From NCBI GenBank assembly GCA_903844685.1, contig CAIMUM010000016.1:1-32602 (forward strand): a stretch of 32,602 nt of DNA. The letters are read 5' to 3'. The notes beneath the pieces were generated by a model, which did no database searches, was not told the DNA's origin, and was given only the letters and a program-made list of their open reading frames with translations. A program made the translations under genes and the position numbers. The stretch is from an uncultured Dehalococcoidia bacterium. Lineage in GTDB: Bacteria > Chloroflexota > Dehalococcoidia > GIF9 > UBA5629. Positions 17,901-32,602 of this stretch are shown here, piece by piece (position 1 is the stretch's first letter; the number at the start of each line of letters is the position of its first letter).

Positions 17901-20267
17901 GACAGTCTGGCCAGCCCCGGCACCTTTTGTCCAGATTAAACTTATCTGGCCATTCCCCGGCGTAGCCGCGAAACCATTGGGCGCATCCGGCAGGGTGAGG
18001 AAGGTTTTTTCACCCCCGCCGGCTATGGCTACAGTGTTCTGACACTGAGCAATGAAATAGTATTTAGTGCCCTGTGTTAGCGGCGGGGTATTAACATTGT
18101 AGCTGAATGGCCCGGCGGTTATATTATCTGAACTCCAGGTAGTATTTTCCGTATAAACACCCGATGTTGTTCCCCAGCGAAAGCGGTACTGGCAGTCCTC
18201 GCCGCCGTTATCAGTCAAAGTCCCGTTAAGCGTAGCGGTGGTAGCACCGATATTCGTGGCATTATCTGTGGTCACCGCGGGTAGCAATGCCCAGGGCCCC
18301 CAGGTTGGTTCGGGGTCAACAAACTTCCTTAGAAATATCCAATCGACAGTAATATTCTCGCCGGGCGCATCAGAGTCAATATATAAATATCTGGGGGTCG
18401 CGGTAGGATAAATCCCGGCTATTTCGGGACCTCCATACAGGATGAACGTGTCATTGTCCGCAGCATATCTCCTGCATTCGGCTACATGATAACCAGTATC
18501 TACTGTCAGAAGCATATCAGGTTTAACGTAGTTAATATTATCGCCGGATATCGCAGAGAAATCGTAATCTTGATCATAATATCTGAAAGCCGAGGTGAAT
18601 TCACTGTCTGAAATGCTTCCTGCCGTATTTACAAACCCGATAAGCCTGGGATTGAGTAAACTCGTTAAATTGTCCGTAGTATCGAACTTTGCTCTTGAAT
18701 GTAGAGCATAGGCATTATCGTATGCGGCTATACTGGCTGCGTAAGTTCGGTTTTCAGAACCTGTGACCGTTAGAAGCCCACCAGAGACCGTGATAGCGCC
18801 CCCGCCGCCGATATACGCGGTCCAGCGGCTTGCATCCAGCGATATACCATCAAACTCATCGCCAAAGACAAAGGTATTTTGAATATTCGATACAGGCAGC
18901 GCCCCACTGTTGCCGTAATAGAGATAGAAGCTGGCAGTGCCGGGCGCAGCAGGGATAGAATCAAATTCAACCCATACCTTGGCAGTGACGTTATCCGATG
19001 ACTCGATCCAGTAGTCAAGCAGGGTGGCCCCGTCACCGCTGGTGAACCTGATGTCGCTGTAATCGCTGTTGCATTGTGTGCCCAAATAGACATCAGTGGC
19101 ATTGTCCGTTCCGTTTGTACGATTAATTCTAATCGGCATCTGGTAATATGTCAGAACACCCGCGGTTGACCCATTAATGGTGATTTTCTTGCGATGGCTC
19201 CAATTATTGAGCGATGTAACCTTTAATGTAACGGGCACGGTTTGCGAGGTAGCATTGTCGGCGCTTATGGTGATGCTCCCATTGTAGGTGGTACCAGGAT
19301 CTAAACCCGTGATATCAGCACTAACGGTTACATTATCCCATTCGCCGGTGGAATTGCCACTGGCCGGGTTGATCGTAAGCCAGGTACCAGCTTTTGTCGC
19401 CGACCAGGTAAGGTTGCCACTGCCTGAATTGGCAATTTTCAAAGTCTGCGCCGCCGGATTTCTGCCACCCTGATTGCCGTTGAAAGTCATGCTCGTAGGG
19501 CTGCTTGCTATCTTAGGCGCAACATGATACATAATGTCGGGCAAACGAACAACTGTAAAGCCATTATCCTTGAGATAGTCCATTTGAGCGGTGAAATTGT
19601 CTACAGTCACGGGGGTTGGTGCTGATGGATCGTTCGAAACCGAATGATAAACAAGGCAGATTACGGATGTATCACTGGCCGGGGCAACTATCCCTGCAAA
19701 AGTTATATTATCAGTTGTTTCGTTTATCTCCCTGGCGTCAATAGTATATCGTGCTGTAATATTGTCCACCGTCGGATTATAGGGAGGCGGATTGGCGCCG
19801 GACCTTGCACAAATATAACCGGCGTTTTCTGCAGTTGCGATAGCGGCATTGGTATAAAAATAATTTGGATATACAAACGTCCTGACATTAAACCCGGCCT
19901 GCTCAAGATCATCTTTTGAGCCCTTGATTTCGTAATCTAACTGTGACTGTGTAACGTTATCGGTCAGTTCCAGGTGCGTCCTGGTGTGAGAGGCGATGTC
20001 CATACCATGGTCGGCCAGATCCTGGATTTCGCTCATGGTCATGACCTTCTTGGCACCAGTACCGCCGCCGATCCATGTGGTGATTATGGCAAATGTGGCA
20101 TAGAATCCATGCGTCTGCAGGATGGGAAATGCATTTATATATTGACTTTCCCACGTGTCGTCGAAGGTAATGCATACCAGCTTTCCGGGGTTGGCTTTTA
20201 CGGACGATGCAGGGACAATATTTACCAGTATCGAAACTACCAGGGCCAGAATAGTTAGTTTTTTCAT
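14940..20267 (-). CDS. Giant multidomain membrane-anchored polysaccharide deacetylase-like protein
   Basis: The protein has 1,775 residues. In order: a signal peptide (1-25); a polysaccharide deacetylase (NodB-like, CE4) domain at about 28-250 with the metal-site motifs T-F-D-D (34-37) and S-H-T-R-T-H (93-98); a BACON-like domain (253-351); a DUF2341 domain and lectin-like region (355-650); three tandem modules of about 190 residues, each a pair of fibronectin-III-like domains (664-855, 858-1047, 1050-1235); a run of 14 Gly within 1240-1253; a beta-rich region (1255-1450); a Pro/Ala linker; a CARDB-like domain (1500-1585); one membrane helix (1589-1613); and about 160 further residues with a second CARDB-like domain. 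The catalytic part should be outside the cell, acting on N- or O-acetylated polysaccharide. No strong ribosome site precedes the ATG. Confidence 0.88.
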   Translation of the reverse strand: MKKLTILALVVSILVNIVPASSVKANPGKLVCITFDDTWESQYINAFPILQTHGFYATFAIITTWIGGGTGAKKVMTMSEIQDLADHGMDIASHTRTHLELTDNVTQSQLDYEIKGSKDDLEQAGFNVRTFVYPNYFYTNAAIATAENAGYICARSGANPPPYNPTVDNITARYTIDAREINETTDNITFAGIVAPASDTSVICLVYHSVSNDPSAPTPVTVDNFTAQMDYLKDNGFTVVRLPDIMYHVAPKIASSPTSMTFNGNQGGRNPAAQTLKIANSGSGNLTWSATKAGTWLTINPASGNSTGEWDNVTVSADITGLDPGTTYNGSITISADNATSQTVPVTLKVTSLNNWSHRKKITINGSTAGVLTYYQMPIRINRTNGTDNATDVYLGTQCNSDYSDIRFTSGDGATLLDYWIESSDNVTAKVWVEFDSIPAAPGTASFYLYYGNSGALPVSNIQNTFVFGDEFDGISLDASRWTAYIGGGGAITVSGGLLTVTGSENRTYAASIAAYDNAYALHSRAKFDTTDNLTSLLNPRLIGFVNTAGSISDSEFTSAFRYYDQDYDFSAISGDNINYVKPDMLLTVDTGYHVAECRRYAADNDTFILYGGPEIAGIYPTATPRYLYIDSDAPGENITVDWIFLRKFVDPEPTWGPWALLPAVTTDNATNIGATTATLNGTLTDNGGEDCQYRFRWGTTSGVYTENTTWSSDNITAGPFSYNVNTPPLTQGTKYYFIAQCQNTVAIAGGGEKTFLTLPDAPNGFAATPGNGQISLIWTKGAGAGQTVIRRSNVGYPTDPNAGDPVYSGPGASYVDTTGLVNGTTYYYSAWSLVTADSLQQYSSSPAQAQATPAAIPIVTTNAAANVSVSTATLNGTLTADGGLSCQVRFQYGPTTSYETDNTSWQTGKRAMYLFSQDITGLSKGSIYHFRAQVENAAGTGNGGDSTFLTKPDAPAGFTAAPGDRQISLSWTKGAGAIRTIIIRKVGSFPADRSDGTQVYYGTGTSYLDPPGLVNGTTYCYSAWSEVTVGIPQQFSDSLAQAQATPAAVPTVITGSATNIGATTATLNGTLIADGGLACQVRFQYGATTSYGTDTSWQLGKVTGDNISQEINPLNKGNIYHFHAQAQNSAGIVSGGDFSLLTLPDAPGGFIAIPGNGQISLIWTKGAGADRTMILRKMGSYPANRTDGVQVYFDTGTGYLDPGLANGITYYYSAWSEVTAGSLQQFSDTQSHTYGTPSGGGGGGGGGGGGGGVVKEPEEVTLPGKIIKDLSYPLLLKFEYLDEMVNETGVSVDGRTSDWLLINFIDKQVSLTMRKNTRIAMVGISSGAGMCKNCGAPTKPPEVIVLTLGKTKPPPDNAVIIGPVYDLNAYQKQGDQDPIPVVISPPARLIISYDPGKLPQGTSSVFIAYYDTQKGWIELISDEVNIGEAGMLAASVSHFTSFAVLAKLAQAPQAAAVSVNQPVVNPAPSSALIPAPVPPPAPSAETTHGIAGGSPVQARFEVKNLVITPMQGTVGQPVQITALLENTGDTGGSYDMNLNIGGIVEGSKHIFIEPGSNQVVSFVVTRDVPGIYRVEVNGLTGTFDLSLPYFYWIVTALLAVLTMLAGIWLGYKLARLRKNITQNSTAPVIGDHPSEDDKHLLMGDTGVRQFTKAELLWAKLSGRDRKVAIQSKEVDKDALPSGIEITAFELSPSQVKQGDTVKALVSLVNSSQTVAVQKYELKLESEILAVEEVTVGPGERRGLILDFTTENMLPGEYQISLKGLHKRLKITQRN
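16509..16550 (-). repeat. Poly-glycine codon run
   Basis: A low-complexity tract of GGN codons encodes 14 consecutive Gly residues, linking the fibronectin modules to the membrane-proximal part. It may vary in length between strains. Confidence 0.8.
16563..18278 (-). repeat. Three tandem ~190-residue fibronectin-III-like modules
   Basis: These are coding repeats inside the giant deacetylase-like protein, at 18278-17703, 17696-17127 and 17120-16563. Each copy carries T-A-T-L-N-G-T-L, then R-F-x-(W/Y)-G, then P-D-A-P-x-G-F, I-S-L-x-W-T-K-G-A-G-A and Y-S-A-W-S. The high similarity suggests relatively recent internal duplication. Confidence 0.85.
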
Positions 20268-20669: not shown

Positions 20670-22496
20670 ATGGGTTATTTGTATATAAAAAAATTTGTTG
20701 CATTATTTGTTTGCCTGTCTGTTCTGATATCTTCAGGCTGCACACAGACACCTTCAACAACCGATACAACCATTCCGGCTACCACCCCGGCGCCAAGCGC
20801 CCATGTGCGAAGCTTACAGACACCACCCTATGGCGGAGGCGAGGCTATTATTTTCATTTTGGACCAGGATACAGATACCGGCTTCGGAGATACGGCAGAT
20901 CAAATAATAAGAGTATTCGGCGAAAACAGCGCCCCACTGAATGTTGCTTTGACACCTTCCATTGTCAATAACAATAGCGATGTGAGTCGGCTGCTCAGCT
21001 ATTTTGATGCCGGCATAATAGACATCAGCATCTATGGCTACCCCATTCCTTGGCTGCCGCAATCGGCATCGATCTCAAGCGCTGCTTATAGTGAGCTTAA
21101 GTCCACCCTTATCCGGTCACGGGAGCAATTCAAGTTTGATTTCGGTGAAGCACCGGCGGCCTGTGTTTTTCCTTCCGCATCTCTCACCGAAGTCAACTAT
21201 TCTTTGCTACAGCAGTCCGGTTTCAAGGTACTGTGTTCGCCGGCCTCCGCCAACTTCTTACCATCAAAGCTGCCGGTTAACTGGTCCGGCCAAACAGACC
21301 CCGACGGACTTTACAGATTGCCGATTGTTGGATCATTTGAGTTTGACTCTGATCTGCTTGATCCAATCGCAAAAAGCGTTGAAGGTCTCGGGATAGCAGT
21401 TATCGAAATACAACCGGCAGCATTAACCGGCAAGGATGGCAAATCAGACGCAGCCAAGCTGGCACAGCTGGCAAACCTGATAAAATCATCCCAGAAACTC
21501 GGCCAGATAACCACGCTGGAAAACTGGTACAGTTACAACGCCCTTGCGACAGCTTCTTCGGTCAAACAGCGCCCACTGCCTCCCTATGATGGAGGGTTTG
21601 TCATTATATTCAGGATGGATGATGTGGCTAAAGGTCTTGATGAAGAAGTGGTGAAAGAGATAATTAAAGTGTTCCAGAATAATGGAATCCCTGTTGATTG
21701 TGGCATATTCTCCAACGGCGTCGCAACCGATTTATATGATATACCCTGGCTAAAGCAATACTTCGACCAGAATGTCGTAGGTATAAGCATTAACGGTTAT
21801 GACTGGACCCCCTATCAACTGGATACTTCCCATGACCTCCAGTATCTGAAGGCCCTGCGCGATAGACCATGCATCGATTGGATAGCTGTACAGCGGGATA
21901 TCCCGAGTGAGAATTTGACGTACTTAGGCATTAAAACCAAGCTGATGCAGGCACGCGCTGAATGCTTAAAATATTTCGGGGTCAGCCCGATAGCATTCAC
22001 TGTCCCCGTTGATTATTACGATGAGCCCGCTTACAGGGCAATCCAGGATGCCGGGTTCAAAGTTTTCTCTACACAAATGAGTAACGAACCTTATCCCGAA
22101 ACGGATTACACAGTGGACTTCTCCGGTAAAAGGGACCTCGGCGGGATGTACAGAATTCCCGCAGTAAAAGACGTCTGCGCATGGGGAGATAACTGCACGT
22201 GGACAGATATTATCGATATCGGAAAAAAAGCATCAATCAAAGATTACTGCAAATATCATGATATTTACCAGGACGTATATGGCTACAATGACAACACGTG
22301 GAGTATCTGCACCGCGCTTGAAAAACTGGGGGTAGCTGCAATAAGTATTCACCCTGAGTGTTTCTTAGACAGGGACGGAAAACCGGATAAGCTCAAGCTG
22401 GAAAAACTGGATTCACTGCTAAAATGGTTCAAATCGTTTTCCACAATTATGACTTTCGATCAGTGGTACAGGTATAAGTTGCTGAATAAATTATAA
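20670..22496 (+). CDS. Lipoprotein with two polysaccharide-deacetylase-like domains, paralogue 1
   Basis: The 608-residue protein begins with a lipoprotein-type signal ending I-S-S-G-C (Cys24) and a Thr/Pro-rich linker. Two homologous halves of roughly 250-300 residues follow, each opening with Y-x-G-G-x-x-I-I-F and resembling NodB/DUF2334-type deacetylase barrels. The second half keeps F-R-M-D-D (314-318) and S-I-H-P (559-562), but the usual metal His is Asn375 in S-I-N-G-Y-D-W. In the first half the Asp pair is D-Q and the His position is Tyr. The protein is therefore probably a binding or degenerate enzyme, tethered outside the cell. The downstream paralogue starts 75 bases later, so this is a tandem duplication. 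A possible extra segment (about 388-414) interrupts the second half relative to the paralogue. Confidence 0.8.
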   Translation: MGYLYIKKFVALFVCLSVLISSGCTQTPSTTDTTIPATTPAPSAHVRSLQTPPYGGGEAIIFILDQDTDTGFGDTADQIIRVFGENSAPLNVALTPSIVNNNSDVSRLLSYFDAGIIDISIYGYPIPWLPQSASISSAAYSELKSTLIRSREQFKFDFGEAPAACVFPSASLTEVNYSLLQQSGFKVLCSPASANFLPSKLPVNWSGQTDPDGLYRLPIVGSFEFDSDLLDPIAKSVEGLGIAVIEIQPAALTGKDGKSDAAKLAQLANLIKSSQKLGQITTLENWYSYNALATASSVKQRPLPPYDGGFVIIFRMDDVAKGLDEEVVKEIIKVFQNNGIPVDCGIFSNGVATDLYDIPWLKQYFDQNVVGISINGYDWTPYQLDTSHDLQYLKALRDRPCIDWIAVQRDIPSENLTYLGIKTKLMQARAECLKYFGVSPIAFTVPVDYYDEPAYRAIQDAGFKVFSTQMSNEPYPETDYTVDFSGKRDLGGMYRIPAVKDVCAWGDNCTWTDIIDIGKKASIKDYCKYHDIYQDVYGYNDNTWSICTALEKLGVAAISIHPECFLDRDGKPDKLKLEKLDSLLKWFKSFSTIMTFDQWYRYKLLNKL

Positions 22497-22571: not shown

Positions 22572-24326
22572 ATGCTACCATCACACGCCCATAAATCTCT
22601 CCAATTGATTCTCAGTGCGTTCATCCTGCTGTCCAGCGCATGCACAGGTATAAATACTCAGACCGCTACAGGTATCCCGTCTAACCTGCCTGCTTCCGAA
22701 GCGCACGTCAGGAAACTGGATACCGCTGCTTATAACGGCGGGGAGGCTGTAGTTTTCATCGTGGAACAGTCTGAAATAAAGGGCGACTTATTGGCTGTGG
22801 TAATAAATATAATCAGGGTTTTCGGCAGCAATAATGTGCCCCTTAATTTAGCGCTGGAACCCGGGATAGTTGATACGGGATCAGCTCTGAGCAGCGAATA
22901 TATTGATTACCTCGATGCGGGTATCATAGACATCAGCGTCGATGGGTATTCTCTACCCTGGCTTCCTCAACAGGCATCCAGTTCATCCCCTTCCTACACC
23001 GAACTTAAATCCAGCCTGATCAAATCACGTGAGCAGTTTAAATATTATTTTGGCCAGACACCGGTCTCCTGCATATTCCCCACGGCGGCCTTCAACGAAA
23101 CCAACTATGACTTGCTGCAGCAATCAGGCTTCAATGTCCTATGCTCGCCAAATTCTGCCAATTTATCTCCGTCAGGCCAACCCACTAACTGGTCCGGCCA
23201 GGTAGATCCCAGCGGGCTTTACAGATTGCCTATGGTCGGCTCATTTGAATCTGACGCTGACTTGCCCGGCATAGCCAAGCGAAGCATGGACAGTAATGGC
23301 ATCGCGTGCATACAGATAAAGCCGGCAACCTTGCAGGGCAAGGACGGCAAGGCGGACCCTGCAAAGCTGGAGCAGCTGTCCACGCTGATAAAATCATGCC
23401 AGAAACTCGGCCAGATAACCACGCTTGAAAACTGGTATAAATACAAATCCCTTACTTCATCTCCCCCTGATAAGGAGCGTCCACTGCCACCTTATTCCGG
23501 AGGGCCGGTCATCATCTTCAGGTTGGACGACGTGTCCAAGGGTTATCTTGAGGATACTGTACAGGAGATAATTAAACTGTTCCAGGCAAATGGTATCCCT
23601 GTCGACTGCGGTGTTGTTTCCAATGCCGGCGGTGTTGATTCATATAAAATCCCCTGGCTCAAGCAATATTTCGACCAGAACGCTGTGGGCATAAGCGTCC
23701 ACGGCTACGACTGGACGTACTATCAGTTGGATACTACTAAATCAAATCTCTCTTACGATGATATCAAATCAAAATTAATTGCAGCGCGTCACAGATACCT
23801 GGAATATTTTGGAATCAATCCAGTTGCCCTTACTGTCCCAACCGATTATTACGACGAGACCGGGTATCGGGCCGTTAATGATGCCGGTTATAAGATTTTC
23901 GCTACCCAGATTGGCGTTGAGCCCCACCCATCAATAAATTATACTGTCGACTATTTTGGAAAAAGTGATCCCACAGGCATGTACAGGATTCCGACTGCAA
24001 GTGATGTGTGCGCCTGGGACAATATTACAGAAACCTGGAAGGACACTTTCGATATAAATCAGCAGTCCAAGCTTCAGGATTATTGCGGTGAGATTCAACC
24101 GGGTAATGAACAGTATTACAATGATTTCACTACCATGCTTTGTGCCACACTGGGTAAAAACGGGGTAGTCGCGATTGGTATTCATCCATCCTGCTTTATC
24201 AGTAAAGACAATAAACCGGACAGGGCCAAGCTGGAAAAGCTGGACCGGATAGTCAAATGGTGCAAGTCATTTGCAACCATCCTGACATTCGAACAGTGGT
24301 ACCGTTACAGGATAGGTGAAAAATAG
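22572..24326 (+). CDS. Lipoprotein with two polysaccharide-deacetylase-like domains, paralogue 2
   Basis: The 584-residue protein parallels the preceding gene along its whole length. It has a lipoprotein signal L-S-S-A-C (Cys24) and two deacetylase-like halves. The second half keeps the full set of likely metal ligands: F-R-L-D-D (316-320), S-V-H-G-Y-D-W with His377, and G-I-H-P (His538). The first half has lost them (E-Q in place of D-D, and Asp in place of His). This makes its C-terminal domain the only one of the four in the pair likely to be catalytic. The probable role is deacetylation or recognition of an extracellular polysaccharide. No separate promoter or good ribosome site is evident in the 75-base gap, so it is probably co-transcribed with paralogue 1. 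Confidence 0.82.
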   Translation: MLPSHAHKSLQLILSAFILLSSACTGINTQTATGIPSNLPASEAHVRKLDTAAYNGGEAVVFIVEQSEIKGDLLAVVINIIRVFGSNNVPLNLALEPGIVDTGSALSSEYIDYLDAGIIDISVDGYSLPWLPQQASSSSPSYTELKSSLIKSREQFKYYFGQTPVSCIFPTAAFNETNYDLLQQSGFNVLCSPNSANLSPSGQPTNWSGQVDPSGLYRLPMVGSFESDADLPGIAKRSMDSNGIACIQIKPATLQGKDGKADPAKLEQLSTLIKSCQKLGQITTLENWYKYKSLTSSPPDKERPLPPYSGGPVIIFRLDDVSKGYLEDTVQEIIKLFQANGIPVDCGVVSNAGGVDSYKIPWLKQYFDQNAVGISVHGYDWTYYQLDTTKSNLSYDDIKSKLIAARHRYLEYFGINPVALTVPTDYYDETGYRAVNDAGYKIFATQIGVEPHPSINYTVDYFGKSDPTGMYRIPTASDVCAWDNITETWKDTFDINQQSKLQDYCGEIQPGNEQYYNDFTTMLCATLGKNGVVAIGIHPSCFISKDNKPDRAKLEKLDRIVKWCKSFATILTFEQWYRYRIGEK

Positions 24327-24350: not shown

Positions 24351-25319
24351 CTATGCCCGCTTTTTATACCAGTCAATATATTTCTGCAAGCCTGTTTTCA
24401 AACCGGTAACGGGTTTATATCCAAGCAGGGTCTCAGCTTTAGCAGTGTCAGCTATGCGGTTAAAGACTTCGATTTCCAACGACCGGCGGCGATCGTAATT
24501 TACATATTTTGTATTGACCTGTCCTTTAAGATTCAGGGTGCTCAGCACCATATCGGCCAGTGTATTAATGGATACAGCTTTTCCCGTTCCGAAGTTTATC
24601 ACCTGGTTAACACCTTCATCCATAATACCGGCCAGCAACGACATATCAACACTGTCTTGCACATAAGTGAAATCGCGAGTCTGGTTCCCGTCGCCGTAAA
24701 TATAGAGTTCCTGCCCCACCAGCGCCCTGTTTACAAAGCGGGAAAGTACAAACCGGTCGTCCTGACGCGGCCCGTACGAATTAAAAAAGCGCAGGGCAGT
24801 ATACTCAAGCCCAAATTTCTGGTAATACGCCATGCAGAAATGTTCGCCAATCAACTTGGTTAAGGCATAAGTGGACTTGGGATTAAACGGACCTTCCTCC
24901 ACCATAGGTTTAAGTGAGTCACCATAAACCTCCGAGGAGGACGCAAAGATAAAGCGCTTGACCTTATTCTTGGCCGCGAGGGAAATGACATTGGAAGTGC
25001 CCACCACCTCAACGTTGAGCAGGTTGACTGGTTCATCCTGCGTTTCCTCCACACCCACCACCGCGGCAAGGTGAAAAACCACATCCTGATCTTTGAAAAG
25101 AGGCGCAATGGCTGCAACATTCAAAACATCCTCTTCATGGATAACGAGGTTTTTGTGCCCGGAAAGGCGCTCAATCTTGTTTCCGCACAGCATAGTATCT
25201 ATCACTGATACATTTGCACCAAGTTCAAGGAGCCTCTCTACCAAGTGAGATCCGATAAATCCAGCGCCCCCGGTGACCAGCACTTTCAAACCTCGATATT
25301 TATCCAATACGTCTTTCAT
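24351..25319 (-). CDS. NAD-dependent nucleotide-sugar epimerase/dehydratase (extended SDR)
   Basis: The 322-residue protein is a full-length extended short-chain dehydrogenase. It has the Rossmann motif T-G-G-A-G-F-I-G-S-H (residues 16-25), F-H-L-A-A, the S-S-S-E-V-Y-G catalytic loop, Y-A-L-T-K as the Y-x-x-x-K pair, R-F-F-N-S-Y-G-P-R and G-D-G-N-Q-T-R-D-F. This pattern suits UDP-sugar 4-epimerases, dehydratases or UDP-glucuronate decarboxylases; the exact reaction cannot be decided by eye. AGAGG precedes the ATG at 25319. It is the last gene of the minus-strand run that includes the GT2 glycosyltransferase 63 bases upstream, so it probably supplies a sugar nucleotide to that enzyme. Confidence 0.88.
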   Translation of the reverse strand: MKDVLDKYRGLKVLVTGGAGFIGSHLVERLLELGANVSVIDTMLCGNKIERLSGHKNLVIHEEDVLNVAAIAPLFKDQDVVFHLAAVVGVEETQDEPVNLLNVEVVGTSNVISLAAKNKVKRFIFASSSEVYGDSLKPMVEEGPFNPKSTYALTKLIGEHFCMAYYQKFGLEYTALRFFNSYGPRQDDRFVLSRFVNRALVGQELYIYGDGNQTRDFTYVQDSVDMSLLAGIMDEGVNQVINFGTGKAVSINTLADMVLSTLNLKGQVNTKYVNYDRRRSLEIEVFNRIADTAKAETLLGYKPVTGLKTGLQKYIDWYKKRA

Positions 25320-25381: not shown

Positions 25382-26908
25382 TCAGTTACCCGATTCTTTA
25401 GCAGGTTTTTGCGGAATTTGCAGCAGTGAACTGGCAGCAGCCGGCCTTTGTGAATATGTTTTGTCTCCAATCCTGGCAACCTTTTCCCGCCGGGGGTATG
25501 TTCCACCGGCAAGTATTATATCGATTAAAGCTTTGATCATCGTAAAATCCAAAAATTGCTTGTAACCTACTATGAAAAGTGGTGAATAAATAGCCAGCTT
25601 CAAATCTTCATCAGCTATCAGGATAGCAAGTATAGATATTAATAATTGAAGTGCCATGAAAAGGGCAAGTGCGAGTACGAGCGTCATCCACTCGCCATCG
25701 ATAAGCATTATAACTGACGTGACAATTACGACAAGGCTGGCAAAAGGCACCAGTGTCATAGACAGCAGCATGTAAGGGAATGTCAATTTGTTCATAATAC
25801 CGAACCGGGGATTGAAAAATGCATCCCTGTGCTTCCAGAAATTCTGGAAATCGCCGCGGAACCAACTTAACCTCTGTTTGTAAACATCCTGCAGGGTTTC
25901 AGGAGCTTCCGTATAGCACACAGCTTCATTGCTACCATGCAATATCTGGTGCGATTTGAGCAATTTAATCGTTATATCAAAGTCTTCGAGCAGGTAATCC
26001 GGGTCATAATTACCTGCTTCCTTGAGGGCTGCTTTGCGGAACGCACTAAACGCGCCTGATGCTACCGTCAAAGAACCAAAGTTCTCAAAAGCCCTCCTGA
26101 CAATTTGTATTTGAACTATATATTCAAGGGCTTGAAGTTTTGTCAGTATATTGGTCCGGTTGTAGACCTTCAGGTTGCCGGCGACACCCGCGACGTCCGG
26201 ATCCTCAAAACCCCTTACTATCTCAGACAATGATACCCTGGTAATCATACTGTCAGCATCCACAGTGATAATTATTTCACCCGTAGATACAGCGATACCA
26301 GTATTCAACGCCGCAAATTTTCCACCATTGGGCCGCCTGACTACTTTGACACCACGCCCATTGAACTCTGAGGCTACTTCGAAAGTATTATCCTTTGACC
26401 CATCATCCACCACGATAATCTCTTTATCCGGATAGTCTGCCTCGATAATAGTTTCTATGGTTCTGGCAACAACCTTTTCCTCATTATACGCCGGTATGAT
26501 GATACTTATCCGCGGTTGATAATTGCTCGGTTTAAATATCTCCTTCCGTTCCTTGAGCTTGTGAAAAATGGCCAGCGGTACTGTTAAAAAGTTGATAAGC
26601 ATGGTAAATATCAATGAAACGAGCAGCAGCTGAATTAAGAGCGAAACCTCGATATTCCATAAGGTAATAATAAAAATAATGAAAATTATAAAAAAAATGA
26701 AGAGGAGCGAGGTCAGATTCTGCCAGGGACTTGGTTTCTGTTCCCTTACCTGTTTGCCTTTTACTAACCTCGATATAAAATGGTAGATGACTATCACAGC
26801 CATCGCTCCTAAACCAATCCAGATGGATTCCACGGGCATGAAATAAAAAATACCCAGCAGCAGAATCAAGAATAGCGCTGCAACAACAAAAATAGCTATG
26901 TTCTTCAT
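25382..26908 (-). CDS. Processive family 2 glycosyltransferase, membrane polysaccharide synthase-like
   Basis: The 508-residue protein has N-terminal membrane helices (about 4-24, 28-46, 65-112), a cytoplasmic GT-A domain (about 133-360), then three or so helices (about 371-465). The catalytic residues follow the cellulose/hyaluronan/PgaC synthase order: D-D-G (168-170), D-A-D (217-219) and L-L-E-D-F (Asp309, general base region). The last motif is Q-R-L-S-W (345-349), where processive enzymes have Q-x-x-R-W, so the Arg is replaced by Ser. It should polymerise UDP-sugars and move the chain across the membrane. Its neighbours (SDR epimerase, UDP-sugar dehydrogenase, deacetylase-like lipoproteins) support an exopolysaccharide role; the polymer is unknown. 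Confidence 0.87.
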   Translation of the reverse strand: MKNIAIFVVAALFLILLLGIFYFMPVESIWIGLGAMAVIVIYHFISRLVKGKQVREQKPSPWQNLTSLLFIFFIIFIIFIITLWNIEVSLLIQLLLVSLIFTMLINFLTVPLAIFHKLKERKEIFKPSNYQPRISIIIPAYNEEKVVARTIETIIEADYPDKEIIVVDDGSKDNTFEVASEFNGRGVKVVRRPNGGKFAALNTGIAVSTGEIIITVDADSMITRVSLSEIVRGFEDPDVAGVAGNLKVYNRTNILTKLQALEYIVQIQIVRRAFENFGSLTVASGAFSAFRKAALKEAGNYDPDYLLEDFDITIKLLKSHQILHGSNEAVCYTEAPETLQDVYKQRLSWFRGDFQNFWKHRDAFFNPRFGIMNKLTFPYMLLSMTLVPFASLVVIVTSVIMLIDGEWMTLVLALALFMALQLLISILAILIADEDLKLAIYSPLFIVGYKQFLDFTMIKALIDIILAGGTYPRREKVARIGDKTYSQRPAAASSLLQIPQKPAKESGN

Positions 26909-26967: not shown

Positions 26968-29295
26968 TCAGATTAATTTCCCCAGGTCCTGCTGTTCAAA
27001 TATATCTATCTTCTGTTGCACAGCAAATTGCTTGGCCTGGTCACTTACTCGCGGCAATCCAAAAAATACTTTGTTGCGTATGCCCGCATCGAAAGCGGCC
27101 GCATCGAATTTTGAAACCTCGTCCAACCCTACCGGTTGACCGGTGGCGCTGCCGGCAATACCGATGGCGATCGTAGGTACTACGATTTTATCGTCTTTAC
27201 GTGCAAATACATCAAATACATGCTCAACACCGGATTTTCCCAGTATAAGCGCCCTCTCATATACATCATAACCGCGGTTGCGCAGAAACTTCACCACTGT
27301 TGTCCTGGCGCTCCCTGACGCGGATGCCGCTTGGTTTTCAACCGCTTCCACCCTGCTTTGCATACCAATCTTGGAGCGATCCATATGAGTTAAATCCGCA
27401 ACTACTGCTGCCAATGTCTTGGCTTCATAAGCACGGATCATCTGTCTACCAGCAAAATTCATAGCTTCAGGTCCAAGCTTGGGAATCGCAATTACTACCT
27501 TGTAATTGATACCGATATCGTAGGCGCGTGTGTCAAACCTGAATAATGATTCCAACCCAACTTCCGGTTCGCCCGAGGCGGCAACCAGGATACCTATTCC
27601 AAGGTAGATCTTGGTAATTATGTCATCCCTGATGGCAAGGACGTCCACCGTATGCACCGCTCCGGACCGGCCGGTTAACTGGGCCAATTCATGCACCTGG
27701 TAGCCCTGGTTCTTAAGGAAATCCACCAGTTGTGTTTTCGGTTTCATCTGGAATTCAAGCCAGCCTTTCTTATCAGGGCTGAACTGGTAAGAAAAGGTCT
27801 CTACCTCTCTCAGCTCTCCGGCATTCCATACCTTGCGTGTTTTCATATTGCGCCACTTCATAACCGGTGTCGTGAATACCTCGCTGCAATCCTGGCATCT
27901 GTAGTGTATCCCAACGTTGCGGTAATCTGTGCCAATTAAGCGTAAATCCTTACGGCATTTGGGGCATACATAGCGGCTATCCTGCTTGAAGTCTTTGTCC
28001 AGTCCCACATAACCACAGGAAAAATGTTCCACCAGTTGCCCTTTGATTATATTTGCCGAATCGCAGCGCGGGCAGCGCTCCGTAGGTATCAGCTGAAAAA
28101 ATCCATCAGGATCAACGTAAAACTTTTCAAAAGACTGCTTGATCAGAATGCCATTGGTGGCAAGCGTTTCAAGTATATTAATAGTATCCTCCTCGGAGGC
28201 ATCTATCAGGCTACTTACGGAGGGATATGCATAGCCCGTCTTGTAACTGAAATCTACCACGGGATTGATATCAGGCAGCTTGCCGCTGACCAGAGCATCC
28301 ACAACTTTGACCACGCGTGGATCACTGAGTATCGCAGCCCCCTCATCATCACCGTTCGATGACGACTGTATCCCGGCGGGAACAGCGATCTGCTGCTGCA
28401 AAGGAGGAGGAGTCAACGGCCCTTTTACCTTATTCTGAAGATCTCTTTCCAAAGGCGGCACAATGGTGTGTGCAGCTTCTTGTCTTTGAGGAGTAACCTG
28501 CTTTTGCATTACGACCTCTGGCTGAGGTTGAACCTGCTGTGCCGTATCCATCGAAATATGCGGCCCCCTGGGTCGGACATAAACCGCTGGCGCCTCGTTA
28601 TATGTCTGTTGGACCGGTGTCACAGGTGGCCGCGAATATACCTCTGGTGCATCAGGCGCCTGGGTTGCAGACGCGACATCGGGCTTAACCTGATCTGTAG
28701 TCCTCCGGTTATAGAATTGCGCAACGGGTTCAGCCTGAGGCTGGATCCGGGCTGCAGATTGACCAGGAGCCGCCGGGGGAAGATTACCAGCGGCTTGCTG
28801 TGCAACCGGCGCCGATACTATCCTTGGTCCCGGCCTCGGTTGTACAGATTGCTGTGCCGCTGGCTGTCCCTGAGCAACCTGCTCTTGTGTCTGTGCCGCT
28901 GATTGACCCATCGGCTTACTCTGTTCTTTATCCGATTCCGGCCTCCGTAGCATCGCCTTGATACGAGCGAGCAATTCACGGGGACTAACCGGTTTGCGTA
29001 AGTAAAGATCAAACCCCAATTCCTCGACCCTGGCCCATGCGTCCGAATCAGGGATAGTGCCCAGCAGCACGATTAAAACTCCCTGCTGCTGTCTTACCTT
29101 GAGACAAGCCTCATAGCCGCTAATATCGGATAGTTCATCGTCAATTACAACTACTTGATACTTGTTCTTGTCGAGCATAACGAGCCCTTCAAGACAACCA
29201 GATGTGCCAGCCGCATCAAGTCCGCTTTGCTGCATAATCTCAAGGTTTTTTTCTTTTAGTACCGGGTCGCTTGAAATAAAAAGAATTTCACTCAT
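26968..29295 (-). CDS. Response-regulator-like protein with TackOD1 zinc domain and tandem nuclease-fold domains
   Basis: The 775-residue cytoplasmic protein starts with a receiver domain (1-118). It keeps the phospho-acceptor Asp (Asp52 in V-V-V-I-D-D-E) and Lys101 (R-K-P), but the N-terminal acidic pair is S-S (8-9), so it may not bind Mg or phosphate normally. A Gln/Pro-rich linker (120-310) and a helical segment follow. A cysteine-rich module lies at about 405-475: C-P-R-C at 408, H-x-x-C-G at 424-428, C-P-K-C at 444, I-G-T-D-Y, and C-Q-D-C at 467. It matches my knowledge of the TackOD1 signalling output domain. Two homologous C-terminal domains (about 521-635 and 665-775; F-L-K-N-Q-G-Y and F-L-R-N-R-G-Y) resemble Mrr-type nuclease folds without an obvious E-x-K. 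A GAGGG ribosome site supports the ATG. Confidence 0.8.
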   Translation of the reverse strand: MSEILFISSDPVLKEKNLEIMQQSGLDAAGTSGCLEGLVMLDKNKYQVVVIDDELSDISGYEACLKVRQQQGVLIVLLGTIPDSDAWARVEELGFDLYLRKPVSPRELLARIKAMLRRPESDKEQSKPMGQSAAQTQEQVAQGQPAAQQSVQPRPGPRIVSAPVAQQAAGNLPPAAPGQSAARIQPQAEPVAQFYNRRTTDQVKPDVASATQAPDAPEVYSRPPVTPVQQTYNEAPAVYVRPRGPHISMDTAQQVQPQPEVVMQKQVTPQRQEAAHTIVPPLERDLQNKVKGPLTPPPLQQQIAVPAGIQSSSNGDDEGAAILSDPRVVKVVDALVSGKLPDINPVVDFSYKTGYAYPSVSSLIDASEEDTINILETLATNGILIKQSFEKFYVDPDGFFQLIPTERCPRCDSANIIKGQLVEHFSCGYVGLDKDFKQDSRYVCPKCRKDLRLIGTDYRNVGIHYRCQDCSEVFTTPVMKWRNMKTRKVWNAGELREVETFSYQFSPDKKGWLEFQMKPKTQLVDFLKNQGYQVHELAQLTGRSGAVHTVDVLAIRDDIITKIYLGIGILVAASGEPEVGLESLFRFDTRAYDIGINYKVVIAIPKLGPEAMNFAGRQMIRAYEAKTLAAVVADLTHMDRSKIGMQSRVEAVENQAASASGSARTTVVKFLRNRGYDVYERALILGKSGVEHVFDVFARKDDKIVVPTIAIGIAGSATGQPVGLDEVSKFDAAAFDAGIRNKVFFGLPRVSDQAKQFAVQQKIDIFEQQDLGKLI

Positions 29296-29355: not shown

Positions 29356-30093
29356 TTAGTATTGAACATATTTATATCCGTCAGCTTCCTTCAATAGAAT
29401 TTTAGGGTTATTGGGATCATCTTCCAATTTTTCCCGCAGGCGGTGTATATATTCCTGCAGATGGGCAGTACTATTAACATATTCCGCACCCCACACATGG
29501 GTAAGTATATTATCGGCTGAAATGACCTGACCAGAAGCTGAAGCCAGGTACTTCAAAAGAGTCAACTCCGTACCCGTTAATTTCACCACGTCGCCATCCT
29601 TATACACCACATCTTTTGTGAAATCGATAACAATCCGGTTGGTGGTTGCTTTTTTCCTGATCACAGGGGAACCGGATTGTCCAGAATAATCCTGTTTTTT
29701 TATTGCCGCTGATGTCTTTTGCCGGTGATGCAACACGGCCTTAATACGCGCCAGCAGTTCCTTATGACTGAAAGGTTTGACAATATAATCGTCCGCACCC
29801 ATCTCCAGGCCCCTGACCTTGTCCGTCTCCTCACCCCGCACGGTCAGTATGACCACAGGGATATCAGAGTAACTGCGTATTTCCTTAAGAACCAGCATGC
29901 CATCCATATCGGGAAGGCCTAAGTCAAGCAATACCAAATCGGGCAACTCTGATTTCATCATGGCGAGGCCTTCAGACCCCTTGACAGCCTGGATTATTTT
30001 AGCTTCAGGCCAGTGTATTTCAAATATCAGGCACGTGATTTCACGGATGTCCGCATTATCTTCGATAAGGAGTATCTTCACAGGTTCCGGCAT
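29356..30093 (-). CDS. OmpR/PhoB-family response regulator
   Basis: From the ATG at 30093 the protein has 245 residues. It has a receiver domain with the acidic pair E11-D12, phospho-acceptor Asp57 (L-L-D-L-G-L-P-D-M-D-G) and the Lys of Y-I-V-K-P-F. A winged-helix DNA-binding domain follows, with L-T-G-T-E-L-T-L-L-K-Y-L, Y-I-H-R-L-R-E-K-L-E and G-Y-K-Y. Translation from the upstream in-frame ATG (30177) would add 28 non-homologous residues that overlap the kinase gene, so I reject it. The gene begins 17 bases after the histidine kinase stop and clearly forms a two-component pair with it. It is likely to bind direct repeats in the region controlling the kinase and the adjacent polysaccharide genes (inference). 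Confidence 0.92.
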   Translation of the reverse strand: MPEPVKILLIEDNADIREITCLIFEIHWPEAKIIQAVKGSEGLAMMKSELPDLVLLDLGLPDMDGMLVLKEIRSYSDIPVVILTVRGEETDKVRGLEMGADDYIVKPFSHKELLARIKAVLHHRQKTSAAIKKQDYSGQSGSPVIRKKATTNRIVIDFTKDVVYKDGDVVKLTGTELTLLKYLASASGQVISADNILTHVWGAEYVNSTAHLQEYIHRLREKLEDDPNNPKILLKEADGYKYVQY

Positions 30094-30110: not shown

Positions 30111-31349
30111 TTATTTTTCGCTCAAAGGCAGCGAAAATGAGAAAGTGCTGCCATTGCCGACATCGCTTTGTACCCAAATAGCGCCGCCGTGCAATTCGAC
30201 GATCTGCTTGCTGATCGCCAATCCAAGCCCAAGACCAGGTATCCCTGACCTGTCAGTGGACGGGTGATAATAAGGGACAAATAGTTTCTTTTTTTCCTCA
30301 TTGGGGATACCGGGTCCGGTATCCTGCACATTGACAACAAGTCTCTTCTCATCCTTATAGGCTTTTAAAAATATTTGCCCACCTTCAGGTGTAAACTTTA
30401 TTGCATTGGACAACAGATTCAGCAACACCTGCTCTATCCTCTGATCATCCGCATGTATCTTAATATATGGAGTGACGTCCAGATTCAAGGTCTGTTTCTT
30501 TTGTTTTACCAGAGATAAAACCTGGTCAGCCACCTCTGCCGCCAGCCGGGAGAAGTCGAATTCCTTCTTATTTATCCCGAAGGTCTCGTCCTTATTTTTA
30601 GAAAGATTAATCAGCTCGCTTAAACGGTTTTGCAGGCTGGTAGCACTGCGCGATATATTTTGCGCTATTCTTAATAACGTCGATTCTTGTTTTTTCTCCA
30701 GTTCTTCTATCAGCAGTCCGGTAGATGCGATAATCGCCGTCAGCGGTGTTTTCAACTCATGGCTAAGCGCACTTAAAAACAGATGGGTATGGGTGATCTC
30801 ATCCTGCTGTTTGGCAACCTCAGCTTCCCCATGATCAAGACAGGCACGGCCGCACACATCAGAAACACATGAACCTACGGCAGACATCAACTTATTTTCG
30901 TTCAATGTAAAAAAGTTCGATTTTGTTGACAGTCCACCGATCAATCCGACTAATTTACCACTTGAAATCACAGGAGAGGCGATGAGTGAGAAAAAACCGG
31001 CTTTAGCTGCTGCATCCCAATTGTAATTTGGATCGTTGCTCACATCATTGCAGTATATCGTTTTCCTATCTAATGCAACTCTGCCGATAGCGTCCATACC
31101 GACCTGGACAGATTCCAACTCCTTTATCAGGGACTCAGGCAATCCGTGCTGCACAACCAGTACCAGGGAATTTGTGGAGGCATTAAATTTCTGTATCCAG
31201 CAGGCGTCCAGATCAATAGCGTTGCCCATTTCCCACAGGACACTATCCAGAATATCCTTATCAGCAAGCGCACTGGATACCACATCTGAAATATCCGATA
31301 GTAAATACAGATACTTGTTTTTCTGTTGCCCTGCCTGTTGCATACTCAT
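30111..31349 (-). CDS. Soluble sensor histidine kinase (GAF-HisKA-HATPase)
   Basis: The 412-residue protein has no membrane helix. It has a GAF domain (about 30-165) and the phospho-acceptor His197 in L-S-H-E-L-K-T-P. The ATP-binding domain has an N box around Asn315 (N-L-L-S-N-A-I-K-F), a G1 box D-T-G-P-G-I-P (343-349) and a G2 box G-L-G-L-G-L-A (372-378). It therefore senses an intracellular signal through the GAF domain, which carries several Cys residues (Cys161, 166 and 170 just after it), and phosphorylates the response regulator encoded next. A near-perfect promoter lies directly upstream, with the -10 box nine bases before the ATG at 31349; a second ATG is two codons later. Confidence 0.93.
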   Translation of the reverse strand: MSMQQAGQQKNKYLYLLSDISDVVSSALADKDILDSVLWEMGNAIDLDACWIQKFNASTNSLVLVVQHGLPESLIKELESVQVGMDAIGRVALDRKTIYCNDVSNDPNYNWDAAAKAGFFSLIASPVISSGKLVGLIGGLSTKSNFFTLNENKLMSAVGSCVSDVCGRACLDHGEAEVAKQQDEITHTHLFLSALSHELKTPLTAIIASTGLLIEELEKKQESTLLRIAQNISRSATSLQNRLSELINLSKNKDETFGINKKEFDFSRLAAEVADQVLSLVKQKKQTLNLDVTPYIKIHADDQRIEQVLLNLLSNAIKFTPEGGQIFLKAYKDEKRLVVNVQDTGPGIPNEEKKKLFVPYYHPSTDRSGIPGLGLGLAISKQIVELHGGAIWVQSDVGNGSTFSFSLPLSEK

Positions 31350-31547: not shown

Positions 31548-32602
31548 ATGCCGCGTGCCGAATTGACAGTGAACGATCTGCGTAACCTGGAAAGCAGGAT
31601 AAAGGATAAATCAGCCGAAATAGGGGTAGTAGGCCTGGGTTACGTGGGGTTGCCCCTGGCTTTGGCCTTTGCCGAGGCCGGATTCAACGTAACCGGCATT
31701 GATTCAGACAAGGGACGGGTTAACAAGATTATCCGTGGTATCTCCTATCTGCTTGATATAGGATCAACCCGTTTAAAGAAGGCCGTTGCCAGCGGGCGCT
31801 TGAAAGCAACAACCAGCCAATCAGTCCTACGCAGGGTAGACACGATCATTATCTGTGTACCTACACCCCTGACCAAAAACAAGGAACCGGATTTAACCTA
31901 TATCGTGAGCGCCACCAATGATATCGCACGTTACCTGCGCCTGGGCCACCTGGTAATACTGGAAAGCACTACTTACCCGGGAACCACGCGTGAAATCGTT
32001 CTTCCATTGCTGGAATCAACCGGGCTAAGGGTGGGTATCGATTATTTCCTGACCTTTTCGCCGGAGCGCATCGACCCCGGCAGCAGAAAATTCACCATAA
32101 GGAATACACCCAAGGTAGTCGGCGGCATGGAGCCTAAATCCACCAAACTTGCAGCACTGCTCTACGCACATGTTTCAGACAAAGTGCTGGAGGTTTCTAC
32201 CCCCGAGGTAGCTGAAATGGACAAGGTCTTCGAAAACGTTTTCCGCAGCGTCAACATAGCCCTGGTAAACGAATTAGCCAAACTGTGTGAAAAGATGAAT
32301 ATAAATGTGTGGGAAGTCATCAAGTGCGCTTCAAGCAAACCTTTCGGTTATATGCCTTTTTATCCCGGACCGGGGGTGGGCGGCCATTGCATTCCATTAG
32401 ACCCTTACTACCTTGCCAGCAAAGCCAGGGAATATTTATTTCACACAAGATTCATCGAACTTGCCGCTGAGATCAATGAAACCATGCCCGAATACATAGT
32501 CGAGCGTATCATTGATACCCTTAATACCCGCAGCAAAAGTGTGAAAGGGTCCAGGATACTTGTACTGGGCGTCGCCTATAAAAAAGACATCGAAGATATC
32601 AG
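31548..32602 (+). CDS. Nucleotide-sugar dehydrogenase (UDP-GlcNAc/UDP-Glc 6-dehydrogenase family), 3' end outside window
   Basis: The frame from the ATG at 31548 stays open to the window end, giving 351 codons of an expected 430 or so. AGAGGAG lies 9 bases upstream. Motifs of the UDP-glucose/GDP-mannose dehydrogenase family appear in order: the Rossmann loop G-L-G-Y-V-G-L-P-L, C-V-P-T-P-L, E-S-T-T-Y-P-G-T-T, F-S-P-E-R-I-D-P-G, N-I-A-L-V-N-E-L-A, and the catalytic Cys in G-V-G-G-H-C-I-P-L-D-P. The enzyme oxidises a UDP-hexose or UDP-HexNAc to the uronic acid using two NAD+. The motif pattern is closer to WbpA/TviB-like UDP-GlcNAc dehydrogenases than to Ugd, but this is a judgement by eye. It should supply uronate precursors for surface polysaccharide. 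Confidence 0.92.
   Translation, partial: MPRAELTVNDLRNLESRIKDKSAEIGVVGLGYVGLPLALAFAEAGFNVTGIDSDKGRVNKIIRGISYLLDIGSTRLKKAVASGRLKATTSQSVLRRVDTIIICVPTPLTKNKEPDLTYIVSATNDIARYLRLGHLVILESTTYPGTTREIVLPLLESTGLRVGIDYFLTFSPERIDPGSRKFTIRNTPKVVGGMEPKSTKLAALLYAHVSDKVLEVSTPEVAEMDKVFENVFRSVNIALVNELAKLCEKMNINVWEVIKCASSKPFGYMPFYPGPGVGGHCIPLDPYYLASKAREYLFHTRFIELAAEINETMPEYIVERIIDTLNTRSKSVKGSRILVLGVAYKKDIEDI

What the first reader, a model, noticed from the sequence alone, without database searches (positions are those of the whole stretch)
26968..29295. TackOD1-type regulator with degenerate receiver and tandem nuclease-fold domains
This protein combines a receiver that has Ser-Ser in place of the acidic pair, a long Gln/Pro-rich linker, a seven-cysteine zinc module of TackOD1 type and two homologous C-terminal domains that look like Mrr-type nuclease folds lacking an obvious E-x-K. 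It lies directly downstream of a complete two-component pair. It may be a non-DNA-binding output protein coupling signalling to polysaccharide synthesis or to nucleic acids.
Basis: partly seen in the sequence, partly recalled or inferred. Interest (0 to 1): 0.65.

Follow-up and report, generated by a model that had tools for sequence, protein, structure and literature searches.

The report
Dead-nuclease signalling protein beside polysaccharide synthase
A bacterial signalling protein built from a broken phosphorylation domain, a zinc module and two dead restriction-enzyme domains belongs to a family found in type IV pilus gene clusters, and appears to have been re-used beside a sugar-polymer synthase, probably as a regulatory adaptor.

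Summary
On the minus strand, 26968-29295 encodes a 775-aa protein with four parts: a degenerate receiver (Ser-Ser for the acidic pair), a Q/P-rich linker, a TackOD1 domain (E 4e-30) and two Mrr-type domains. Domain 2 models at pLDDT 90 and matches Mrr-like nuclease folds (PDB 1y88, E 6e-7). The catalytic E/Q-x-K is missing from 105 of 106 related domain copies, so this is a pseudo-nuclease.

Sister proteins without the receiver (TackOD1 plus two dead nucleases, full 11 Cys + His zinc set) lie in type IV pilus gene clusters, often directly beside the motor gene pilB. Across the class Dehalococcoidia the same tandem pair is also fused to the N-terminus of PilB. The window's subfamily is one clade nested inside the pilus-locus TackOD1 proteins. 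It gained the receiver, lost one of three zinc sites, and lies in an operon with a histidine kinase, an OmpR regulator and a PgaC-like glycosyltransferase (the last next to 12 of 13 members).

Best reading: a non-catalytic adaptor that passes a signal to the membrane glycosyltransferase by protein contact, as its relatives probably do for PilB. The anatomy is well supported; the mechanism is inferred.

The parts
28939..29295 (-). Degenerate receiver domain, residues 1-119: S8-S9 in place of the acidic pair, Thr replaced by Leu, D52 and the KP lysine kept
   Evidence: Pfam Response_reg E 1.6e-10; alignment with companion regulators, 9 of 9 members
28342..28938 (-). Gln/Pro-rich linker, residues 120-318, poorly conserved
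   Evidence: 32% Q+P; unalignable between orthologues
27787..28308 (-). TackOD1 domain, residues 330-503; 7 Cys + 1 His, two predicted zinc sites; first and last CXXC of the family lost
   Evidence: Pfam PF18551 E 3.9e-30, 109 bits in genome search; Cys table
27394..27756 (-). Pseudo-nuclease (Mrr-type fold) domain 1, residues 514-634
   Evidence: family HMM E 3e-48; no E/Q-x-K
26971..27324 (-). Pseudo-nuclease (Mrr-type fold) domain 2, residues 658-775
   Evidence: Mrr_cat E 1.2e-5 for residues 655-775 alone; AF2 pLDDT 90.2, pTM 0.83; Foldseek 1y88 E 5.7e-7, TM 0.72
25382..26908 (-). Membrane GT2 glycosyltransferase, PgaC/IcaA-like, 59 bases downstream of the finding
   Evidence: Pfam Glycos_transf_2 E 8e-38; NCBIfam PgaC_IcaA E 5.6e-59, below its cut-off; conserved neighbour
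24351..25319 (-). NAD-dependent nucleotide-sugar epimerase/dehydratase, same operon
   Evidence: Pfam GDP_Man_Dehyd E 4e-61
29356..30093 (-). OmpR-type response regulator with intact acidic pair and Asp (likely start at the internal ATG; ORF extends to 30177)
   Evidence: Response_reg E 1e-26, Trans_reg_C E 1e-18
30111..31349 (-). Histidine kinase: GAF, HisKA (SHELKTPL H-box), HATPase
   Evidence: Pfam; sequence
31548..32600 (+). Divergent nucleotide-sugar dehydrogenase (runs off the window)
   Evidence: NCBIfam NDP-sugDHase 378 bits against cut-off 190

Best explanation
The protein is a non-enzymatic signalling adaptor. Its core, TackOD1 followed by two Mrr-fold domains that have lost the catalytic E-x-K (iREase), is a module of type IV pilus machinery: its relatives are encoded beside PilB, pilins or prepilin peptidase, and the same tandem iREase pair is fused to PilB itself. 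In one family of Dehalococcoidia a copy of this module gained a degenerate receiver on a flexible linker, lost one zinc site, and became fixed between a histidine kinase / OmpR regulator pair and a PgaC-like membrane glycosyltransferase. Proposed mechanism: the pseudo-receiver binds a component of the two-component system. The TackOD1-iREase part then contacts the cytoplasmic side of the glycosyltransferase (or its complex) and switches or scaffolds polysaccharide synthesis, as iREase probably acts on the PilB motor. Shown here: the domain make-up, lost active site, conserved operon, pilus-locus kinship, PilB fusions and nesting. Inferred: the protein contacts, the direction of control, and that the receiver is not phosphorylated.
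For: Domains. Catalytic K kept in only 2 of 106 domain copies and an E/Q/D-x-K match in 1 of 106, while 6 of 6 genuine Mrr proteins from relatives keep it. iREase pair N-terminal to MshEN-T2SSE in PilB genes across the class, with pilC beside it in the loci read. Receiver-less TackOD1-iREase2 genes directly beside pilB in 6 loci, including the window's own genome (C171), and with pilus genes visible in 15 of 20 loci examined. TackOD1 family arCOG06883 is also reported in thaumarchaeal pilus loci (PMC4858521, PMC5847659). Tree: the receiver type is one clade (100/100) nested within pilus-locus TackOD1 proteins; PilB fusions form the other side. The GT2 gene follows in 12 of 13 receiver-type loci, even where the kinase/regulator pair is absent (L025, L036/L102). 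Precedent for one regulatory module serving both pilus ATPases and GT2 synthases: MshEN in MshE/PilB and NfrB (PMC5013675, PMC8669469).
Against: No contact between this protein and the glycosyltransferase, or action of the iREase pair on PilB, has been shown; gene neighbourhood and fusion are indirect. No fusion of the module to a GT2 was found. One member (L040/L105) has no GT2 beside it. Retention of D52 and Lys leaves residual phosphorylation possible. The kinase/regulator pair could act on transcription alone, with this protein merely co-transcribed.
Confidence: 0.5

Rival explanations
1. It is a nucleic-acid-binding regulator. The dead Mrr domains and zinc ribbons bind DNA or RNA without cutting, and the protein controls transcription of the polysaccharide operon.
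For: The Mrr fold and zinc ribbons often bind nucleic acid (established knowledge). The first acidic residue (D695 position) is kept in 96 of 106 copies. The N-terminal part of TackOD1 models as helices plus a strand, possibly winged-helix-like, but in a poor overall model. Published REC-wHTH-TackOD1 architectures exist.
Against: The OmpR regulator in the same operon already supplies a DNA-binding output. The same tandem domains are covalently part of the PilB motor across the class, where DNA binding has no obvious role.
Confidence: 0.2
2. The iREase pair is a small-ligand receptor, for example for a nucleotide second messenger, which then changes the partner machine (PilB or GT2); the receiver only localises it.
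For: The mouth of the former active site keeps its own signature (G686, S688, G689, H692, D695 at 81-99%) and a new FDxxAxDxGIxxK motif that genuine Mrr proteins lack. The genome has 7 GGDEF hits but no PilZ hit. GGDEF ORFs lie within about 11 kb of iREase-PilB genes on the same contig in several genomes.
Against: Direct ligand evidence is absent. PilB already carries MshEN, a known c-di-GMP receptor. The genome is 78% complete, so the missing PilZ is weak evidence.
Confidence: 0.2
3. It still belongs to the pilus system: the operon's signal is sent in trans to the PilB encoded elsewhere (C171), and the glycosyltransferase neighbour is incidental.
For: Close kinship with pilus-locus proteins; the own genome has a PilB without iREase beside a TackOD1-iREase2 paralogue.
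Against: The GT2 neighbour is kept in 12 of 13 loci, including loci that lack the kinase/regulator pair. No pilus gene was found in the window among the ORFs scanned.
Confidence: 0.08
4. It is an active nuclease, for example a defence protein.
For: Above-cut-off Mrr_cat match and nuclease fold.
Against: E/Q-x-K lost in both copies here and in 105 of 106 copies overall; conserved operon of signalling and sugar genes.
Confidence: 0.02

Closest known systems
TackOD1-containing response regulators (PF18551, arCOG06883; Galperin et al. 2018, PMC5847659)
   Same: REC fused to TackOD1; TackOD1 domain over the curated cut-off; association of the family with pilus loci
   Different: Receiver is degenerate; 7 Cys + His instead of 11 Cys + His; two dead Mrr-type domains follow, which that paper's main text does not mention (word search)
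Mrr / PD-(D/E)xK restriction endonuclease domain (PF04471; structure 1y88)
   Same: Fold and sequence family; first catalytic Asp kept
   Different: E/Q-x-K lost, tandem, new conserved S/H/D and FDxxAxDxGI motifs
Inactive restriction-endonuclease-fold domains (NA-iREase1 PF22722; RPB5 jaw)
   Same: Nuclease fold without the catalytic lysine, used as a non-enzymatic module
   Different: Only a sub-cut-off match, and on a PilB relative (25.7 bits against a 27-bit cut-off), not on the window protein; different partners
MshEN regulatory domain of PilB/MshE and NfrB (PMC5013675, PMC8669469)
   Same: One regulatory module used on both pilus ATPases and a GT2 polysaccharide synthase
   Different: Unrelated module; here the regulator is a separate protein near the synthase, and no ligand is known
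PilZ/FimX adaptor complex of PilB (Xanthomonas citri, PMC8389850; title and abstract only)
   Same: Cytosolic proteins acting on PilB; a works-like analogy
   Different: Built from other domains; no kinship tested or claimed

Membership tests
TackOD1 (PF18551) | Profile match over the curated cut-off | tested here: met
   105 bits against 32
TackOD1 (PF18551) | 11 conserved Cys in five CXXC plus an HXXC motif (PMC5847659) | tested here: not met
   7 Cys + His in the ligand columns of 12 of 13 receiver-type members, fewer in L027; 17 of 17 pilus-type relatives have all 11 + His. By sequence it is a derived relative with one zinc site fewer.
Canonical receiver (PF00072) | Profile match | tested here: met
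   E 1.6e-10, 41.6 bits against 30.2
Canonical receiver (PF00072) | Acidic pair, phospho-acceptor Asp, Thr/Ser and Lys | tested here: not met
   Asp and Lys kept, acidic pair and Thr lost in 9 of 9
Mrr-type PD-(D/E)xK nuclease | Fold | tested here: met
   Domain 2: AF2 pLDDT 90, Foldseek top hit 1y88. Domain 1 by homology only; the longer model was poor
Mrr-type PD-(D/E)xK nuclease | Catalytic D...(E/Q)-x-K | tested here: not met
   D kept, E/Q-x-K lost
Type IV pilus ATPase-associated iREase module | Common descent with the PilB N-terminal tandem pair | tested here: met
   Family HMM finds the pair in 19 PilB fusions; tree
Type IV pilus ATPase-associated iREase module | Physical action on PilB | not testable with these tools
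   needs a binding or piliation experiment
c-di-GMP receptor | Binds c-di-GMP | not testable with these tools
   needs a binding assay

The most novel reading that the evidence does not exclude
The tandem dead-nuclease pair is a previously unrecognised regulatory receptor (ligand or partner sensing) of type IV pilus motors throughout the Dehalococcoidia. It has been transplanted, with TackOD1 and a pseudo-receiver, onto a polysaccharide synthase, so that one sensor fold controls both surface machines.
Probability: 0.2. Interest if true: 0.75.

Novelty: new variant of a known kind. Interest (0 to 1): 0.52.

Why it matters
TackOD1 has no known function. Here it is tied, in bacteria, to the type IV pilus motor through a concrete partner: a dead restriction-enzyme pair that is also fused to PilB itself. 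This gives TackOD1 a testable role, extends the use of inactive nuclease folds to motor ATPases, and suggests how a pilus regulator was re-used for polysaccharide synthesis.

Tried and rejected
AF2 of residues 318-775 with 8 close orthologues gave a poor model (pLDDT 59, pTM 0.38), so it was not used for fold searches; domain 2 with both copies aligned worked. Profile searches of the PDB by sequence found nothing usable for the iREase pair or for TackOD1 (only weak generic zinc-ribbon matches). Loci from the genome search were not given to the structure predictor, because its stated rule does not list them. An active-nuclease or defence reading was rejected on the lost E-x-K. An 'incidental two-component neighbour' reading was weighed: both genes or at least the regulator are present in 8 of the 10 loci where this could be seen, and the GT2 neighbour is kept more often. 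Paper searches for Mrr with PilB, iREase with NACHT, and PilB with Dehalococcoidia found no paper that, from its listing, describes the fusion; most subscription journals are not held.

Full report
Observation. The interval 26968-29295 encodes, on the minus strand, a 775-residue protein; the opposite strand is closed by stops. Pfam gives a receiver at 5-113 (E 1.6e-10), TackOD1 at 330-503 (E 3.9e-30, 105 bits against a cut-off of 32) and Mrr_cat at 667-774 (E 1.3e-7). Residues 120-318 are 32% Gln+Pro. A family profile places the two C-terminal repeats at 514-634 and 658-775.

Relatives and operon. Seven orthologues (65-84% identical in the best segment, query being the last 465 residues) were found in GTDB contigs, all Dehalococcoidia/Chloroflexi, and more in the same order. 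TackOD1 over its cut-off was found in only 4 of 301 sampled genomes of the phylum, all in the window's order. In the loci that are long enough the order is kinase (GAF-HisKA-HATPase), OmpR regulator, this protein, a membrane GT2, a nucleotide-sugar epimerase, and a divergent nucleotide-sugar dehydrogenase. The GT2 follows directly in 12 of 13 members, confirmed by Pfam in the two divergent cases tried; the exception is L040/L105. The kinase/regulator pair is missing in L025, together with the receiver itself, and in L036/L102, yet the GT2 stays. The GT2 is closest to PgaC/IcaA (E 5.6e-59, below the family cut-off), and polysaccharide-deacetylase-like proteins lie nearby.

Receiver. Against the companion regulators, the acidic pair (E-D) is S-S or S-N and the conserved Thr is Leu in 9 of 9 members; the acceptor Asp (D52) and the Lys of the KP motif are kept in 9 of 9. 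Loss of the metal-binding pair makes ordinary phosphorylation unlikely (established knowledge of receivers; not tested).

TackOD1. The published domain has 11 Cys and a His (PMC5847659). All 17 receiver-less relatives aligned have that set. The 13 receiver-type proteins have all lost the first and the last CXXC, leaving 7 Cys + His in the ligand columns (5 Cys in L027, which has also changed one Cys to Asp in the second CXXC and one in the fifth). Joint loss of the outer pairs suggests three nested zinc sites (outer site = first and last CXXC), of which this clade keeps two (inference).

Pseudo-nuclease pair. AF2 of domain 2, with both copies from eight genomes in the alignment, gave pLDDT 90.2 and pTM 0.83. 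The best PDB match is 1y88, AF1548 (E 5.7e-7, TM 0.72), followed by RPB5, MspJI, AspBHI and Can2 structures; the best viral matches are mostly restriction endonucleases. That 1y88 is Mrr-like and that the RPB5 jaw is an inactive nuclease-type fold is from my own knowledge. Genuine Mrr proteins from related genomes keep (Q/E)-x-K in 6 of 6 and the first Asp in 5 of 6 as aligned. Of 106 iREase copies, 96 keep the first Asp, 2 have Lys at the catalytic position, and 1 has an E/Q/D-x-K match near the strand. In its place the family has its own conserved positions, among them S688, H692, D731, D736, G738, I739, K742 and Q761.

The pilus link. Whole-genome searches showed three architectures. (a) Receiver-TackOD1-iREase2, as here. 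(b) TackOD1-iREase2 of about 450 aa: six of 20 lie immediately beside pilB (L042, L045, L047/L110, L054, L059, L109), one of these in the window's own genome (C171). In all, 15 of 20 have pilus genes (pilB, pilin, prepilin peptidase) visible, while the rest have short flanks or contig ends, or show none nearby; pilin and peptidase genes were recognised by eye. (c) iREase2-MshEN-T2SSE, an N-terminal fusion to PilB with pilC beside it and, where the locus is long enough, pilin-like genes. Of the 19 fusions in the tree, 16 carry the searched ATPase motifs, L070 is confirmed by Pfam, and L069 and L100 rest on their C-terminal ends and context. A class-wide search found the domain in 42 of 294 genomes, nearly always as tandem pairs. 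Architecture (c) occurs in single-contig genomes, so it is not a binning artefact. Where pilB lies directly beside (b) and was read in full (L059, L109, L110), PilB has no iREase. Archaeal TackOD1 proteins were already noted in thaumarchaeal pilus loci (PMC4858521).

Evolution. A maximum-likelihood tree of the tandem pair puts the PilB fusions on one side (100/99) and all TackOD1 proteins on the other; the receiver type is one clade (100/100) nested among the pilus-locus TackOD1 proteins, and among coded genomes it was found only in the window's family. The root is a midpoint, so the order between PilB fusion and TackOD1 fusion is not settled. If the root lies on or beyond the PilB side, the receiver type descends from the pilus type.

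Mechanism. Here a dead nuclease pair is covalently part of PilB in one lineage and encoded next to PilB, with TackOD1, in another. The simplest reading is that TackOD1-iREase2 acts on the pilus motor, and that the window's clade has redirected it to the GT2 next door, with the pseudo-receiver as the link to the two-component system. The MshEN domain is a published precedent for one regulator serving both pilus ATPases and a GT2 (PMC5013675, PMC8669469). The contacts themselves are not shown. Rivals (nucleic-acid binding, second-messenger receptor, action in trans on PilB) remain open.

Novelty. TackOD1 appears in one paper of the library, and receiver-TackOD1 is described there. The tandem pseudo-nuclease, its fusion to PilB across a bacterial class, and the re-use beside a GT2 were not found in the papers searched. 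It is a new variant of known kinds, not a categorically new system.

Noticed in passing
L091 1570-4866 (-): A PilB with four iREase domains (two tandem pairs) before MshEN-T2SSE, 1098 aa.
   Followed up: partly
L093 429-3839 (-), L094 1695-5543 (-), L095 1948-5457 (-): PilB proteins of 1136-1282 aa with a long stretch of unknown nature between the iREase pair and the ATPase part.
   Followed up: partly
L025 2941-4521 (+): Kinase, regulator and receiver domain are all absent, as if removed by one deletion, while TackOD1-iREase2 and the GT2 remain.
   Followed up: partly
L027 2-1714 (+): One Cys of the second CXXC and one of the fifth CXXC of TackOD1 are both Asp, suggesting that they share one zinc site. 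Single genome.
   Followed up: no
L060 7289-9051 (-): Three similar small proteins in a row, roadblock/LC7-like by eye (weak MAPKK1_Int match, below its cut-off, for the one tested), between TackOD1-iREase2 and the iREase-PilB fusion.
   Followed up: partly
L059 6242-9526 (+), L060 11562-15113 (+), L069 8572-11838 (+), L070 8845-12111 (+), L110 2228-5647 (-): A protein of about 1100 aa with a signal-like N-terminus and a recurring W-S-x-V-x-T-P stretch lies divergent from the TackOD1 or PilB gene in many of these pilus loci.
   Followed up: no
L065 1-2960, L067 1-2909, L068 10843-13884: GGDEF proteins of about 1000 aa lie within about 11 kb of iREase-PilB or TackOD1 genes in several genomes.
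   Followed up: partly
window 14940-20267 (-), 20670-22496 (+), 22572-24326 (+): A 1775-aa polysaccharide-deacetylase-like surface protein (judged by eye) and two deacetylase-like lipoproteins (Pfam match for the second only); similar lipoproteins also lie beside the orthologous operons.
   Followed up: partly
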